A stretch of DNA of 64,000 nucleotides from Candidatus Saccharimonadota bacterium (GTDB taxonomy: Bacteria; Patescibacteriota; Saccharimonadia; Saccharimonadales; Saccharimonadaceae). Positions 54,093-64,000 of the stretch are shown one piece after another (positions within the stretch are counted from its first letter, which is position 1; each line of letters starts with the position of its first letter). The notes beneath the pieces were generated by a model. That model ran no database searches and was not told the origin of the DNA. It saw nothing but the letters and a program-made list of their open reading frames with translations. A program made the position numbers and the translations under genes. Location: assembly GCA_017404325.1 (NCBI GenBank), contig JAFRCO010000015.1, positions 1 to 64,000 on the forward strand. The letters are read 5' to 3'.

Positions 54093-56684
54093 ATGAATCC
54101 TAATTTATATTTAAGTGCTTCTGGAAATGTTGGTAATAACGCCTGGGACAATATGGGGGATGTTGAGTTCCATAGTGATCATGATTCTGCTGAAAAACTA
54201 AAAAAGGATAAGTTTTCTGGAATAAAAAAATTTTTAGGAAACATTTTCCATTTTTCGGTCATAAAAGATGTTTCGAGAAAAATTGATTCTTTCCAGCCCG
54301 TCGAGAACGAGGACAATGTAGCTAATTTAAAAAAAGTTAGTGATAGACTTGGGTCTAATGAGGGCGGATGGTATGAAAGACCCAATGGCGAAAGACTTTA
54401 TGTTAAATTTTACGAAAATCCTAGTCAAGGGAAAGTTGAATTTATTGCCAATGCTATTTATGCCAAACTTGGGATAAAGGCCGTTCGTTCTGAAATAATC
54501 AATTTAGATAATCGTGAAGCCATTGCTTCGCCTGAGATACCGGGGGCTATACCGACCGATAGGTACTCTCAGAATGTAAGTCGGGATGTTCAAGAGGGAT
54601 TCGTGGCTGATGCTTTTCTGGCGAACTGGGACGTAGCAGGTCTTGTTTACGACAATATCGTCCAAGGGAAAGACGGTTTTTATCGGGTAGATAATGGTGG
54701 CTCTTTAATATTTAGAGCGAGGGGAGGAGATAAAGATTTCTCTCCGGATTCAATCCCAGAACTTACGACCATGCGACAACCTGGTCGTCAAAGTGGTGAG
54801 GTTTTCGCCAATATAACTGACGAGGAAATAAAGAGACAGGCACGTGAGTTGATAAGTAAAATTAATGCTGAAGATATAAAGACCATTGTTGATGCGTCGG
54901 GTCTAGAAGGGGAAGAGCGGGATAGAGTATTAACTGGATTGTTAGGTCGACTTAATTACTTAACTACGACGTATGGAGAATCTAAAACCGATGAAAGACG
55001 CACGAGGCAAGATTTGAAGGATGCAATTAGAAGGGTGAGCGAACAAGAAGTTGAACCGGTTGGCGAGAGAATTATTTGTCCTAAGACCGAGATTGTGTGC
55101 GACCATGATCATATTGAGGGGCAGAAAATTGATGTTATAAATAAAAAGAAGCAAGGAACGATTGAACTTAGTTTCAAATTAAGAACTCAAACTAAAACTA
55201 TAAATGATATGATTAGACTGTTAGAAAATGGGGAAGGAGAACAGTTTAATATTACGACTCCAAGCGGGGCTTTGCTAAGACGTGAGAAGATTACCTATGA
55301 GGACTCGTCTCTAGATAATAAATTTGATTTATGTGATGCAGTTCTTTTTGAGAAGGAAGGAATTAAAGTTTTTATTGCTGATTCTACGTCGCGAGGCGAA
55401 ACAGCAAACACAATTTCATTTCAAAGTAATAGTAGCCATGTTGTGCGGACGGCCATAGGTTTAATTAAGATTGAAATCGCAGCCGACGCAGATCCTCAAT
55501 CGGTTGAGCAAACCTTAGAAGATATTTTTGAATTAGATTTAGGAATTCCGGATGCTTTTGAAGATGTTTCGGAAGAAGCAGAAAGAGAATATAAAAAGGC
55601 TCGTTATAAATGGCAGTATGCAATTTCTGGTGAGTTGACTCCTGAACAAGCAGAACGGGCGGAGATGTTGGAACGTGCAGAAGTATTTCCTGGTTATAGT
55701 ACTTTTGTAGAAAAAGGTAAGCATAAAGAATATCTCAAAAAATATGGTGAGGATATTCGTGCGGCACATGAGTTATATTATGCAGATGCAAAGATGATAA
55801 TCATGATATTGACTCAAGGGTTAATGAGTACGACTGAAAGATTTTCTAGGGGTTTCGTAAGAAATGGGATGTCGTCTAAATTAGATTTGGATTCGGGTGG
55901 AGGAGATAATGTCTTTACTAGAATTACTAATGAAAAAAGTAGGCGAGAAGGGCAATTTGATAGTGATATGATGGTCGTATTTAAGCCCGAGTTATTTGAT
56001 CGTACAGATTGGTTTTCTTATGAAGAAGACAATTATGGTTCGACTGATGAAGAATTGTTTTCTAAGCGATTGTCGCCAGATGCTCTATTTGCCAAAATCT
56101 TGGAGTATAATTTTACGGATCATAAGAATGAGCAAATGTTTAGAACTGGTATTGGTCCTAACTACATAGAATCAATAATGATAGATCCAGAAAAGTATGA
56201 TGCAACTATCTCGGAGTTGAAATCTTTAGGTTTTGAAGAAATAGATGGTAAACCAATTGAAGAAATTGTAATACCGCGAAAATTATCTGAAGAAGAGAAG
56301 CGTGCTCAATTTGAACTAGAGCAACAAGAAAAACAATCTAAAATAAAAGCTTTGATTAATGGAGAAGAATCATATGCTTCTTTTGAAGAGTTGGTTGATC
56401 TTGCTAATGCTGCGGAAGATGGCAATATTAATGGTTCTATTATGATGATGATGGATTCTTTAATCGCACGAGGTAAAAAAGAACAACTCAAAAAAGATAC
56501 GATGGATTATTTTATAGAGAATTTTACTATTGATGAATTAAAAGCGCTTGCTTCGCATGAAAAGATTAGCACTTTTACGGATGATGATTGGCAATTTTTC
56601 GAATATTGTAAGGATGTGTTGGGATTAGACTATGTTGCAATGTTTCAAAACCTAAAAGAGGAGGCGACTGATGGGTATTTTTAA
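54093..56684 (+). CDS. Large effector-like protein with kinase-like and possible ART-like regions
   Basis: 863 residues. No signal peptide. Residues about 90-260 resemble a HipA/PI3K-like kinase fold: Lys105 in 'ERLYVKFYENPS', Glu117 in 'KVEFIANAIYAKLGI', a catalytic-loop-like 'FLANWDVAGLVYDNIV' (176-190) and a metal-loop-like 'YRVDNGGSLIFRA' (197-209). A middle region (about 320-480) is unrecognised. Residues about 575-690 carry 'GLMSTTERFSRGFVRNGMSS', 'GGGDNVFTR' and 'NEQMFRTGI', a spacing that recalls ADP-ribosyltransferase folds (weaker). The C-terminal 130 residues are helical and acidic. The next gene starts within its last codons. The position between two tRNA genes suggests a mobile cassette. 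Activity and target are unknown. Confidence 0.6.
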   Translation: MNPNLYLSASGNVGNNAWDNMGDVEFHSDHDSAEKLKKDKFSGIKKFLGNIFHFSVIKDVSRKIDSFQPVENEDNVANLKKVSDRLGSNEGGWYERPNGERLYVKFYENPSQGKVEFIANAIYAKLGIKAVRSEIINLDNREAIASPEIPGAIPTDRYSQNVSRDVQEGFVADAFLANWDVAGLVYDNIVQGKDGFYRVDNGGSLIFRARGGDKDFSPDSIPELTTMRQPGRQSGEVFANITDEEIKRQARELISKINAEDIKTIVDASGLEGEERDRVLTGLLGRLNYLTTTYGESKTDERRTRQDLKDAIRRVSEQEVEPVGERIICPKTEIVCDHDHIEGQKIDVINKKKQGTIELSFKLRTQTKTINDMIRLLENGEGEQFNITTPSGALLRREKITYEDSSLDNKFDLCDAVLFEKEGIKVFIADSTSRGETANTISFQSNSSHVVRTAIGLIKIEIAADADPQSVEQTLEDIFELDLGIPDAFEDVSEEAEREYKKARYKWQYAISGELTPEQAERAEMLERAEVFPGYSTFVEKGKHKEYLKKYGEDIRAAHELYYADAKMIIMILTQGLMSTTERFSRGFVRNGMSSKLDLDSGGGDNVFTRITNEKSRREGQFDSDMMVVFKPELFDRTDWFSYEEDNYGSTDEELFSKRLSPDALFAKILEYNFTDHKNEQMFRTGIGPNYIESIMIDPEKYDATISELKSLGFEEIDGKPIEEIVIPRKLSEEEKRAQFELEQQEKQSKIKALINGEESYASFEELVDLANAAEDGNINGSIMMMMDSLIARGKKEQLKKDTMDYFIENFTIDELKALASHEKISTFTDDDWQFFEYCKDVLGLDYVAMFQNLKEEATDGYF

Positions 56685-60017: not shown

Positions 60018-60178
60018 AACGCGAGCGGCGAGTAATGAAGCGCGGGGAAATATATGAAATCGAAGAAAAAATATCGGACGGCGACTGGGCCGTGGTTTGC
60101 CAATGCGCGACTATAAACGAGGCCAAACAATTATTAAAAAATCTTAAAGTGTTAGACGGAGAGGAGAAAAATGACTGA
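60014..60178 (+). CDS. Small phage protein (54 aa)
   Basis: 54 residues ('MKRERRVMKRGEIYEIEEKI' at the start), basic then acidic. It starts by ATGA overlap with the upstream gene and ends 8 nt inside the next gene, so translation is well supported by coupling. No family recognised. Confidence 0.55.
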   Translation: MKRERRVMKRGEIYEIEEKISDGDWAVVCQCATINEAKQLLKNLKVLDGEEKND

Positions 60179-61244
60179 TATTAGCGAACTAAAGTTTGAC
60201 GATAAAAACTTTAATAAACATACCGCAAAAGGTATGGGCCTATTAGAAAATTCGCTTGGTAAGTTTGGCGCGGGGCGATTTATTTTAATTGATAAAGATA
60301 ATAATATTATTGCCGGGAACGGAATAGTAGAAGCCGCCGGATCGGTTGGACTGACTAAGCTAAAAATAATCGAAACGGACGGCACGGAACTTGTAGCCGT
60401 TAAACGCACGGACATAACATTAGACTCAGACCAAGGGCGTGAAATGGCGCTTGCCGATAATGCCACGGCGGCGGCAGACTTAGATTGGGATCGCGACAAT
60501 TTGGGCGAATTCTTTGAGCCTGAAGATTTAGAAAAGTGGGATATTGACCTAAATTGGGACAAGGGCGACTTTTATGAAGAAAACACGGGCGAAGCTGGCT
60601 CTATGGTAGACCGCTACGGCGTGCCGCAGAATAGAGAGAGAGTTTTTACTGTTAGTATTTTAGGTGATGCAGACTTTAACTTCCCACCGCGGCGGCCGTT
60701 GGCAAAAAGGCTAAAAAGCGTGCTTGAAGATAATGTTGACGAAAAGTATTATTTAGACGAAGATAGGCTGAAGCAGATAAAATTATGGGAAGATAGGCAA
60801 ATAGAAAACGGAAGGGGGTTTCGCTTTGAGGTAAAAGACGGCGAAAGCATAGGGCGCGCCGTCACAACTAGCGGCGACAGACCAAGTAGCACAAATTATG
60901 TTGCTATAAAAAATAATACAAAAAAAGGTTATTTAATGGCATATGACGGCGATGGGGTTGATTGCTCGTTCCTTGCATCTACTACAAGAAGGGGCCGTGT
61001 GCAACATGGTCTTTCTCAAACGCTACCAGCGTCTAGCCCTTGTATTGGTGTTTTAGATGGGGTTAGAATTCGCAAGCTGACGCCAAAAGAAAGCTATCGG
61101 CTTATGGGCTTTGACGATAGCAGTTTTGATCGTGCGAATAAGGTTATAACAAGCACACAGCTTTACAAGACGGCCGGCAATTCAATTGTTGTGCCGGTTT
61201 TAGAGGCAATATTAGTTAATTTATTGAAGGCCAAAAATGGATAA
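60171..61244 (+). CDS. ParB-domain protein fused to the C-terminal half of a C5-cytosine methylase
   Basis: 357 residues. Residues about 1-110 are a phage-type ParB-like domain ('FILIDKDNNIIAGNGIVEAA', 'LVAVKRTD', 'ALADNATAAADLDWD'). From about residue 145 the protein matches only the C-terminal half of a Dcm-type methylase: motif VIII 'YGVPQNRERVF', 'LEDNVDEKYYL', a target-recognition part, motif IX 'IRKLTPKESYRLMGFDD' and motif X 'YKTAGNSIVVPV'. The SAM-binding motif I, the catalytic PCQ motif IV and motif VI are absent, so alone it cannot methylate. In many phages ParB domains lead into complete methylases; this is probably an in-frame deletion fusion. GAGGAG precedes the ATG. Confidence 0.82.
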   Translation: MTDISELKFDDKNFNKHTAKGMGLLENSLGKFGAGRFILIDKDNNIIAGNGIVEAAGSVGLTKLKIIETDGTELVAVKRTDITLDSDQGREMALADNATAAADLDWDRDNLGEFFEPEDLEKWDIDLNWDKGDFYEENTGEAGSMVDRYGVPQNRERVFTVSILGDADFNFPPRRPLAKRLKSVLEDNVDEKYYLDEDRLKQIKLWEDRQIENGRGFRFEVKDGESIGRAVTTSGDRPSSTNYVAIKNNTKKGYLMAYDGDGVDCSFLASTTRRGRVQHGLSQTLPASSPCIGVLDGVRIRKLTPKESYRLMGFDDSSFDRANKVITSTQLYKTAGNSIVVPVLEAILVNLLKAKNG

Positions 61245-62177: not shown

Positions 62178-62350
62178 CCGAAGAAGAATCTTATGAAGTG
62201 ATTGATCGTCTGCTAATGGCCGCTTTTGGTGATAAAAGAGTAATAGACAAGTTTTGCGCGATTATAGCAAAACAAATCAAAGACAGAGTTATACAGATGC
62301 TTATAGATGAGGGACTTAACGAGTTCAAACTCAAGGAGGGCGATGCTTAG
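62174..62350 (+). CDS. Small phage protein (58 aa)
   Basis: 58 residues, helical ('VIDRLLMAAFGDKRVIDKFC'). AAGGAGG precedes the ATG; it overlaps the upstream stop (ATGA) and the methylase start. No family recognised. Confidence 0.5.
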   Translation: MTEEESYEVIDRLLMAAFGDKRVIDKFCAIIAKQIKDRVIQMLIDEGLNEFKLKEGDA

Positions 62351-62996
62351 GGTTTTAGAACTATTTGCTGGAACTAGATGCATAAGTCGAGCTTTTGAAC
62401 GAAAAGGTCATAAAACATTTAGCGTCGAATGGAATAAAGAATTCGATAATATTGATTTATATGATGATGTGAATAATTTAACATATGATTCGATCATTGA
62501 ATTATGCGGTGGTAAACCGGATATTATATGGGCAAGCCCAGATTGCACGACTTATTCAGTAGCAGCTATAAGTCGGCATCGAAAAGTTAACCCAACTAAT
62601 GGCAACCTTGACCCGATTAGCGAATATGCGAAATTCTGCGATAAAACAAATCATCATGTAGTGAATTTGATAAAAGAAATTAATCCAAAGCTATTCTTTA
62701 TTGAAAATCCGAGAGGCGGATTGCGCAAAATGAGTTTCATGCAAGATATGCCAAGATATACTGTCACTTATTGCCAATATGGAGATAAGCGAATGAAACC
62801 AACAGATATATGGACAAATCATCCATTTCCACATTTTAAACCGGCATGCAAAAATGGCGATTCATGTCATGTTAGCGCGCCAAGAGGTTCTAAAACCGGC
62901 ACTCAAGGTTTAAAGAATTCTAAACAAAGAAGTCAAATACCCGATGCATTATGCGATTATATAGTAAAAATTAGTGAGGAGTTTTTATGCAAGTAG
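62343..62996 (+). CDS. Compact phage C5-cytosine DNA methyltransferase
   Basis: 217 residues from the ATG at 62343, chosen for AAGGAGGG upstream. SAM motif I 'VLELFAGTRCISRAFERKGH', motif IV 'WASPDCTTYS' with the catalytic Cys (PDC instead of PCQ) and motif VI 'FFIENPRGG' are present. The target-recognition part is very short ('YCQYGDKRMKPTDIWTNHPF'), and motifs IX-X are not evident. This short form is known from phages of Gram-positive bacteria and is thought to shield phage DNA from host restriction. No cognate restriction enzyme lies nearby. Confidence 0.85.
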   Translation: MLRVLELFAGTRCISRAFERKGHKTFSVEWNKEFDNIDLYDDVNNLTYDSIIELCGGKPDIIWASPDCTTYSVAAISRHRKVNPTNGNLDPISEYAKFCDKTNHHVVNLIKEINPKLFFIENPRGGLRKMSFMQDMPRYTVTYCQYGDKRMKPTDIWTNHPFPHFKPACKNGDSCHVSAPRGSKTGTQGLKNSKQRSQIPDALCDYIVKISEEFLCK

Positions 62997-64000
62997 AAAT
63001 TGATGTGCCGGCGCCATTTGTTGAACTATTTGAACCGAGCAAACATTGGCGACATATTCTATTCCATGGCGGTCGCTCTAGTGGCAAATCAACCACGGTA
63101 GCCATTTTTCTTGTATCTCTTGCAACAAGCAAACCTATTCGCGTTTTATGTTGCCGCGAGGTTCAGAATTCAATTGCTGAATCCGTGCATAAACTATTAG
63201 CTGATATGATCGCGAAATATAACTTGCCGGGTTGGGAAGTCACTCGTGAAACGATACGCAATGCAAATGGCTCAGAGTTTATTTTTAAAGGCTTGCGTGG
63301 CAATGCACAAAGTATTAAATCACTTGAAGGCATCGATATCTGCTGGGTTGAGGAAGCGCAGACTGTTTCTATGGAGTCAATTGATATCCTTATTCCGACT
63401 ATTAGAAAAGAAGGATCATATTTTATATGGACCTTTAATCGACTAACTGAGAACGACCCGGTATGGGAACGAATCGCAAGTCATCCGGATGATCGAACTT
63501 ATGTGCGTCAAATTAATAGCAATGAAGTCGAGAAATTATTATCGCCGGAAATAATTGCAGAGCGCGAAAAAATGCGCAAGGAAAACCCGGAATTATTTGA
63601 GCATATATGGCTAGGCAAACCGATGACGGTGGCAACTGGTTCAATCTATGGTAAACAATTAGCGCAAGCACGAGAAGATGGCCGCATTGGCAAAGTGCCT
63701 TATGATGGCTCGGCTCCGGTCTATGCCGCGCTAGACCTTGGTGTTGGCGATAGCACGGCTATTTGTTTCTTCCAAACAGTCGGGCAAGAAATTCACTTTA
63801 TAGATTATTATGAAAGCGCCGGCGAAGACTTAGCTCATTATATAAATGTACTAGCTAATAAGCCATGGGAATATCGACAAATATATCTTCCGCATGATGC
63901 ACGCGCAAGGGAATTGCAAACGGGCAAAACGCGTGAAGATTTCTTTAGAGAGCATGGCTATAATAATGTGACTATTCTAAGACCTTCGCGTATGGTTTTA
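62987..64000 (+). CDS. Phage terminase large subunit (3' end beyond window)
   Basis: 338 codons are visible and the frame is still open at the window end. The start overlaps the methylase gene by 10 nt, with GTGAGGA upstream. The ATPase part has the deviant Walker A 'HGGRSSGKSTTVAIFL' (near residue 28), Walker B 'IDICWVEEAQTV' (near 115) and the coupling motif 'YFIWTFNR'. The nuclease part begins with 'YAALDLGVGDSTAI' (RNase H-like first Asp) and 'LPHDARARE' (second Asp). It resembles the PBSX/Terminase_3 group. It packages phage DNA into proheads. Confidence 0.93.
   Translation, partial: MQVEIDVPAPFVELFEPSKHWRHILFHGGRSSGKSTTVAIFLVSLATSKPIRVLCCREVQNSIAESVHKLLADMIAKYNLPGWEVTRETIRNANGSEFIFKGLRGNAQSIKSLEGIDICWVEEAQTVSMESIDILIPTIRKEGSYFIWTFNRLTENDPVWERIASHPDDRTYVRQINSNEVEKLLSPEIIAEREKMRKENPELFEHIWLGKPMTVATGSIYGKQLAQAREDGRIGKVPYDGSAPVYAALDLGVGDSTAICFFQTVGQEIHFIDYYESAGEDLAHYINVLANKPWEYRQIYLPHDARARELQTGKTREDFFREHGYNNVTILRPSRMVL

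What the first reader, a model, noticed from the sequence alone, without database searches (positions are those of the whole stretch)
60171..61244. ParB domain fused to a methylase half that lacks the catalytic core
The protein joins a phage ParB-like domain to motif VIII-X and the recognition region of a Dcm-type C5-methylase; motifs I, IV and VI are gone and the frame is intact. Two readings exist: a deletion that removed the 3' part of a ParB-methylase and the 5' half of a Dcm gene, or a functional DNA-recognition subunit. The compact methylase at 62343 has motifs I, IV and VI but almost no recognition domain and no motifs IX-X, so the two could complement each other as a split methylase (speculative).
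Basis: partly seen in the sequence, partly recalled or inferred. Interest (0 to 1): 0.65.

Follow-up and report, generated by a model that had tools for sequence, protein, structure and literature searches.

The report
Hybrid phage gene, broken methylase half
A virus gene integrated in a tiny bacterium is a hybrid, probably joined by a chance DNA exchange where two methylase genes share a few letters; it has lost the part that does methylation, and the neighbouring small methylase does not appear to need it.

Summary
The ORF at 60171-61244 is 357 aa: a phage ParB-like domain (residues 1 to about 130) joined in frame to the C-terminal half of a C5-methylase (148-351, Pfam profile positions 146-322 of 324). 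Motifs I, IV and VI are absent. Comparison with relatives locates the join. Residues 140-152 (GEAGSMVDRYGVP) look like the linker of ParB/N4-N6-methylase fusions (SLVDRFGVP|PFSVLD). Residues from 149 on match C5-methylases (KDYGVPQNRERV). The two matches overlap at the codons for Y-G-V-P, window 60615-60626, so the ORF looks like a crossover at about 9-12 shared bases. Such a crossover keeps the frame by itself, so the open frame is not evidence of function. No other sequence examined has this fusion. The nearest relatives carry the parts intact: ParB with other partners, and full-length C5-methylases. The missing halves are not elsewhere in this genome. The split-methylase idea is unlikely: the compact methylase at 62343 belongs to a family with its own conserved C-terminus, predicted to fold alone, and is the only annotated DNA methylase in a complete 4.6-kb inovirus. 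Most likely this is a recombination relic without methylase activity, perhaps with a working ParB domain.

The parts
60171..60560 (+). ParB-like N-terminal domain (residues 1 to about 130) of the hybrid ORF
   Evidence: phrog_620 E 1.7e-16; 60-72% identity to ParB domains of many viral contigs
60561..60614 (+). Linker (residues 131-148), ending GEAGSMVDR, resembling the linker of ParB/N4-N6-methylase fusions
   Evidence: Same spacing and pattern as L008 GSLAKEFLAP|PFSVLD, L110 ASLVDRFGVP|PFSVLD and L183 FLTDRFGVP|PFSILD; none of the C5 relatives has it
60615..60626 (+). Inferred crossover: codons Y149-G150-V151-P152, shared by both parent gene types
   Evidence: DNA TAC GGC GTG CCG compared with L110 TTT GGC GTG CCG and L003 TAT GGC GTG CCA
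60615..61241 (+). C-terminal half of a C5-methylase: motif VIII (QNRER), recognition region, motifs IX and X
   Evidence: PF00145 positions 146-322/324; 55% identity to the full-length enzyme in L190
61779..62177 (+). Gene in the small-terminase position (phrog_2412, function unknown there), used as a synteny marker
   Evidence: phrog_2412; homologues upstream of TerL in L186-L191, L176 and L272
62343..62996 (+). Compact C5-type methylase (phrog_757 family), a separate and self-contained gene in the slot where relatives carry a full C5-methylase or other genes
   Evidence: phrog_757 E 6.9e-39; conserved family; AlphaFold2 model pLDDT 89, pTM 0.87
62987..64000 (+). Terminase large subunit (start of gene; runs past the window end), used as a synteny anchor
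   Evidence: PF04466 E 1.1e-31; 81-84% identity to rumen viral contigs

Best explanation
The ORF is a recombination product within a prophage. A crossover at about 9-12 bases shared by two different phage methylase genes (the codons for Y/F-G-V-P) joined the ParB domain and linker of a ParB/N4-N6-methylase to the second half of a C5-methylase. Both genes read these bases in the same phase, so the fusion is in frame without selection. The product lacks the AdoMet site and catalytic cysteine of a C5-methylase and the methylase domain of the left parent, so it should not methylate DNA. The ParB domain may still work, since proteins with this ParB domain and only a short tail are common in the same phages; the C5 half is probably an inert tail. 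Shown: the domain content, the exact break of homology on each side, the absence of the missing halves from the assembly, and intact relatives. Inferred: the crossover mechanism, the loss of methylase activity, and the surviving ParB role.
For: Domain limits. In 58 C5 matches the residues before YG.PQ are of the type VLNAKD; only the window has GSMVDR. ParB/N4-N6-methylases have GS/AS..VDRFGVP|PFSVLD at the same spacing; their methylase half matches PF01555. No relative joins ParB to C5: more than 30 ParB ORFs have other C-termini, and C5 C-halves otherwise have an N-half next to them unless the locus is cut. Sister prophage G297:C20 has ParB-DUF4417 and an intact 499-aa C5-methylase; L190 has an intact 445-aa C5 with the same recognition region. 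ParB/N6-methylase directly followed by C5-methylase exists (L059), and C5 directly followed by ParB exists (L006). The lost halves are nowhere else in the genome.
Against: The C5 half is not visibly decayed: 3 of 48 near-invariant positions differ, against 0-4 in 19 of 20 intact relatives scored the same way, so either the event is recent or something keeps it. The exact left parent was not found; the match of the linker is by pattern and spacing in more distant genes. A single genome carries the fusion, so the time and the order of events cannot be dated.
Confidence: 0.72

Rival explanations
1. A functional non-catalytic DNA-binding protein: the ParB domain gives nucleotide-dependent clamping or oligomerisation, and the C5 recognition region gives sequence specificity.
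For: Frame, motif VIII to X and the recognition region are intact and not decayed. ParB-fold fusions with many partner domains are common in phages (PMC12704722).
Against: Unique to one genome. Residues 131-295 have mostly very low predicted confidence in the hybrid model, although no full-length control was folded and the alignment was thin. The frame is explained without selection.
Confidence: 0.13
2. Assembly artefact: two phage variants in the sample were joined in silico.
For: The genome is a 17-contig assembly; no independent record with the join was found; reads are not available.
Against: The shared bases at the join (about 9-12) are shorter than the k-mers that usual assemblers use. 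Both flanks belong to one syntenic prophage. No leftover fragment of either parent gene is in the genome.
Confidence: 0.1
3. Split C5-methylase: the hybrid supplies motif VIII to X and the recognition region to the compact methylase at 62343.
For: Natural two-part C5-methylases (M.AquI, M.EcoHK31I) and fragment complementation exist (PMC3404938); the two genes are 1.1 kb apart.
Against: The compact family is complete by itself: 37 aligned sequences share C-terminal blocks of their own, the model is confident with a C-terminal helix, and it is the only annotated DNA methylase in a 4.6-kb inovirus and in the part of HFTV1 examined. In most of 51 viral loci no C5 half is nearby, and the few others carry both halves of a separate C5 gene. 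L133 has the compact gene next to TerL with no ParB or C5 half found.
Confidence: 0.03

Closest known systems
Phage ParB-fold fusion proteins (ParB domain with N6_N4_Mtase PF01555, DUF4417 PF14386, DUF3850), surveyed in PMC12704722
   Same: N-terminal ParB-like domain in a prophage protein with a swapped C-terminal module; close relatives here carry N6_N4_Mtase or DUF4417
   Different: The module here is half of a C5-methylase, a partner not mentioned in the passages of the paper that were read and not seen in any relative
C5-cytosine DNA methylases (PF00145, Dcm/M.HhaI type) next to the terminase in rumen phages, e.g. L190 and L003
   Same: Motif VIII, recognition region, motifs IX and X; 50-55% identity
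   Different: Motifs I, IV and VI, the AdoMet site and the catalytic cysteine are missing
Two-subunit C5-methylases M.AquI and M.EcoHK31I
   Same: A polypeptide with only the C-terminal part of a C5-methylase
   Different: In M.AquI the split lies inside the variable region, with motif VIII in the large subunit; here no partner with motifs I-VII of this type exists, and the N-terminus is a ParB domain
Compact phage C5-type methylases (phrog_757)
   Same: Neighbouring gene in the same prophage; distant sequence and fold similarity to C5-methylases
   Different: A separate family that is complete in about 215 residues; not a partner by any evidence here

Membership tests
Active C5-cytosine DNA methylase (PF00145) | Motifs I, IV (catalytic Cys) and VI present | tested here: not met
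   Only profile positions 146-322 of 324 are matched; the ORF begins with ParB
Active C5-cytosine DNA methylase (PF00145) | Motifs VIII, IX and X with recognition region | tested here: met
   45 of 48 near-invariant positions kept
Phage ParB-fold fusion protein | N-terminal ParB-like domain | tested here: met
   phrog_620 and phrog_498; 60-72% identity to ParB relatives; Pfam ParB_N does not fire on this protein
Phage ParB-fold fusion protein | Binds or hydrolyses a nucleotide | not testable with these tools
   Needs a binding assay
Two-subunit C5-methylase (M.AquI type) | Partner polypeptide with motifs I-VII(VIII) of the same methylase | tested here: not met
   No such N-half in the own genome
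Two-subunit C5-methylase (M.AquI type) | Pairing conserved across relatives | tested here: not met
   No relative pairs an orphan C-half with the compact methylase
Two-subunit C5-methylase (M.AquI type) | Activity only when both parts are present | not testable with these tools
   Needs co-expression and a methylation assay
Compact methylase phrog_757 (gene at 62343) | Family-specific C-terminal blocks (YCQYGDKRMKPTDIWTN, CKNG..CH..APRGS.TGTQG) | tested here: met
   Alignment of 37 sequences

The most novel reading that the evidence does not exclude
A phage has turned the recognition half of a C5-methylase into a sequence-specific DNA-binding module for a ParB-fold clamp, giving a new non-catalytic regulator or anti-restriction protein made by one microhomology crossover.
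Probability: 0.08. Interest if true: 0.6.

Novelty: new variant of a known kind. Interest (0 to 1): 0.23.

Why it matters
It gives a concrete case of how modular ParB-X proteins in prophages may exchange their C-terminal domains: short coding-sequence matches between unrelated methylase genes let a crossover stay in frame. It also shows that an open frame and intact motifs in a fusion gene are weak evidence of function when the join lies in shared codons. If the ParB part still works, the gene is a natural test of whether the partner domain matters.

Tried and rejected
(1) Split methylase with the gene at 62343: rejected on family completeness and genomic context. (2) Frameshift splitting as in L042/L043, where a (GA)n tract at motif VIII puts the two halves in different frames: not the case here, because the N-half is absent and only about 50 bases separate the ParB domain from motif VIII. 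(3) The lost halves sitting elsewhere in the assembly: none found. (4) The same fusion in other genomes: the exact 32-base junction and a degenerate V-D-R-Y/F-G-V/I-P-Q-N-R pattern gave no viral contig and only the own genome among 394 of the family. (5) Decay of the C5 half: with 46 intact C5 sequences (distant ones included) the window is ordinary; with 20 closer ones it has 3 mismatches against 0-4 in most, so no clear decay. A first count against 18 sequences (4-5 mismatches of 44 against 0-2) was not leave-one-out and is set aside. (6) A two-subunit C5-methylase annotated in Streptococcus phage MM1 is a 1158-base CDS with a second CDS annotated inside it, so not a useful parallel. (7) Structure of the hybrid: low confidence (pLDDT 57, pTM 0.35) from a thin mixed alignment, no control folded, so little weight is given.

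Full report
WHAT IS THERE. The ORF at 60171-61244 encodes 357 aa. Residues 1-127 match ParB-like phage families (phrog_620, phrog_498), and residues 148-351 match the C5-methylase profile from position 146 to 322 of 324. The half with motifs I, IV and VI is absent. The gene lies in an integrated prophage of a 766-kb genome assembled in 17 contigs. The window is the first 64 kb of an 89.8-kb contig. Beyond the window are further phage genes (portal and capsid are inferred from their order and similarity to the sister prophage in G297) and a tyrosine recombinase near the contig end. A relative of the ParB part sits in a Saccharibacteria assembly (L111); that the host is of this group is an inference from this hit and the genome size.

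RELATIVES OF THE TWO PARTS. In viral contigs the ParB part (60-72% identity in the nearest) is followed by different modules: N4/N6-methylases, DUF4417, or short tails without a Pfam match. The C5 part is found in full-length enzymes of about 350-500 aa. Profile searches for ParB, C5 N-half and C5 C-half over all loci found no other ORF that joins ParB to C5. The closest relatives by terminase (81-84% identity, or 73% for the sister prophage) show what surrounds the site. L186, L189 and L190 and the sister prophage G297:C20 carry a full C5-methylase between the small-terminase-position gene and TerL. L187, L188, G297:C21 and L191 do not. The window carries the compact methylase there. L190 has the same recognition region as the window hybrid (YYLSEDRL..WE.RQ.ENGRGFRFEVKDG).

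WHERE THE JOIN IS. In 58 C5 matches the residues before Y-G-[VI]-P-Q are of the type VLNAKD or DLIATD; only the window has GSMVDR. The ParB/N4-N6-methylases of L008, L010, L024 and L110, and the phage records L180 and L183, have at the corresponding place a stretch such as GSLAKEFLAP or ASLVDRFGVP, followed by P-x-S-[VI]-L-D. The window therefore follows the ParB/N4-N6-methylase pattern up to P152 and the C5 pattern from Y149. The overlap, Y-G-V-P, is TAC GGC GTG CCG at 60615-60626. L110 has TTT GGC GTG CCG and L003 has TAT GGC GTG CCA at the corresponding places. A crossover within 9-12 shared bases explains the gene, and because both parents read these bases in the same phase the product is automatically in frame. 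That the linker comes from this kind of parent is an inference from pattern and spacing; the exact parent was not found.

DELETION OR EXCHANGE. A single deletion would need a ParB/N-methylase gene upstream of a C5 gene. That order exists elsewhere: in L059 a ParB/N6-methylase ORF overlaps the start of a C5 ORF, and in L006 a C5 gene is directly followed by a ParB gene. In the sister prophage the C5 gene is downstream of the small-terminase-position gene, which the window keeps downstream of the hybrid, so a simple deletion from that order does not work. Exchange between two phages is equally possible. The lost halves are not elsewhere in the genome (PF00145; PF01555, where the single hit lies in another gene and matches only the end of the profile).

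DOES IT WORK. The hybrid cannot be a C5-methylase by itself, because the AdoMet-binding and catalytic parts are missing (established knowledge of the family; motif positions). The C5 half shows no clear decay, which fits either a recent event or some retained use. ParB-fold fusions in phages are common and several bind nucleotides (PMC12704722), so a surviving ParB function is plausible but untested. The AlphaFold2 model has a moderately confident ParB part, a confident motif IX-X end and low confidence over most of residues 131-295; without a full-length control this is weak.

THE COMPACT METHYLASE IS NOT THE MISSING HALF. Thirty-six relatives (42-75% identity) and the window gene share conserved C-terminal blocks that are their own and not found in standard C5-methylases. 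The model is confident (pLDDT 89, pTM 0.87), with a C-terminal helix, and aligns with DNMT3 and M.HhaI over about 180-190 columns at TM about 0.5-0.55. In viral contigs most of the 51 loci have no C5 half nearby; the few others carry both halves of a separate C5 gene. It is the only annotated DNA methylase in a complete 4.6-kb inovirus and in the 24 kb of HFTV1 examined. In Bacillus phage BM15 it sits between two other C5-methylase genes. In L133 it lies next to TerL with no ParB or C5 half found in the contig. Published complementation of M.SssI fragments also shows that success depends on where the break lies and often on overlap (PMC3404938).

VERDICT. The fusion is real in the assembly, unusual, and best explained as a recombination relic with an explicable in-frame join. 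It is a new combination within the known, modular ParB-X fusion proteins of phages. The weakest points are the lack of reads, the single occurrence, and the inferred left parent.

Noticed in passing
L042:5990-6025 and L043 (same sequence): A full C5-methylase gene next to TerL is split into two frames by an extra GA unit in a (GA)n tract exactly at motif VIII (CAGAACAGAGAGAGAGAGTC); the same allele is in two metagenomes, which suggests a phase-variable phage methylase.
   Followed up: partly
L075-L080, e.g. L080:3958-3990 and L076:4835-4870: C5-methylase gene with a long (GA)n tract of different length in different contigs, with the 3' part in another frame; possible on/off switching by repeat length.
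   Followed up: partly
L074:6800-6825: C5-methylase split around a run of G in the recognition region.
   Followed up: no
L054:5746-5748 and L068:5761-5763: C5-methylase ORFs interrupted by one in-frame stop codon with homology on both sides; may reflect stop-codon recoding in these phages.
   Followed up: no
L272 (G297:C21) and L176 (G297:C20): One genome of the same genus carries two related prophages with terminases 83% and 74% identical to the window's, i.e. possible polylysogeny that would allow exchange between related phages.
   Followed up: partly
L083/L100/L103 (G144:C22): Three C5-methylase genes in a row in one genome of the same family.
   Followed up: no
window 54093-56684: 863-aa ORF just upstream of the phage genes, not examined further.
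   Followed up: no
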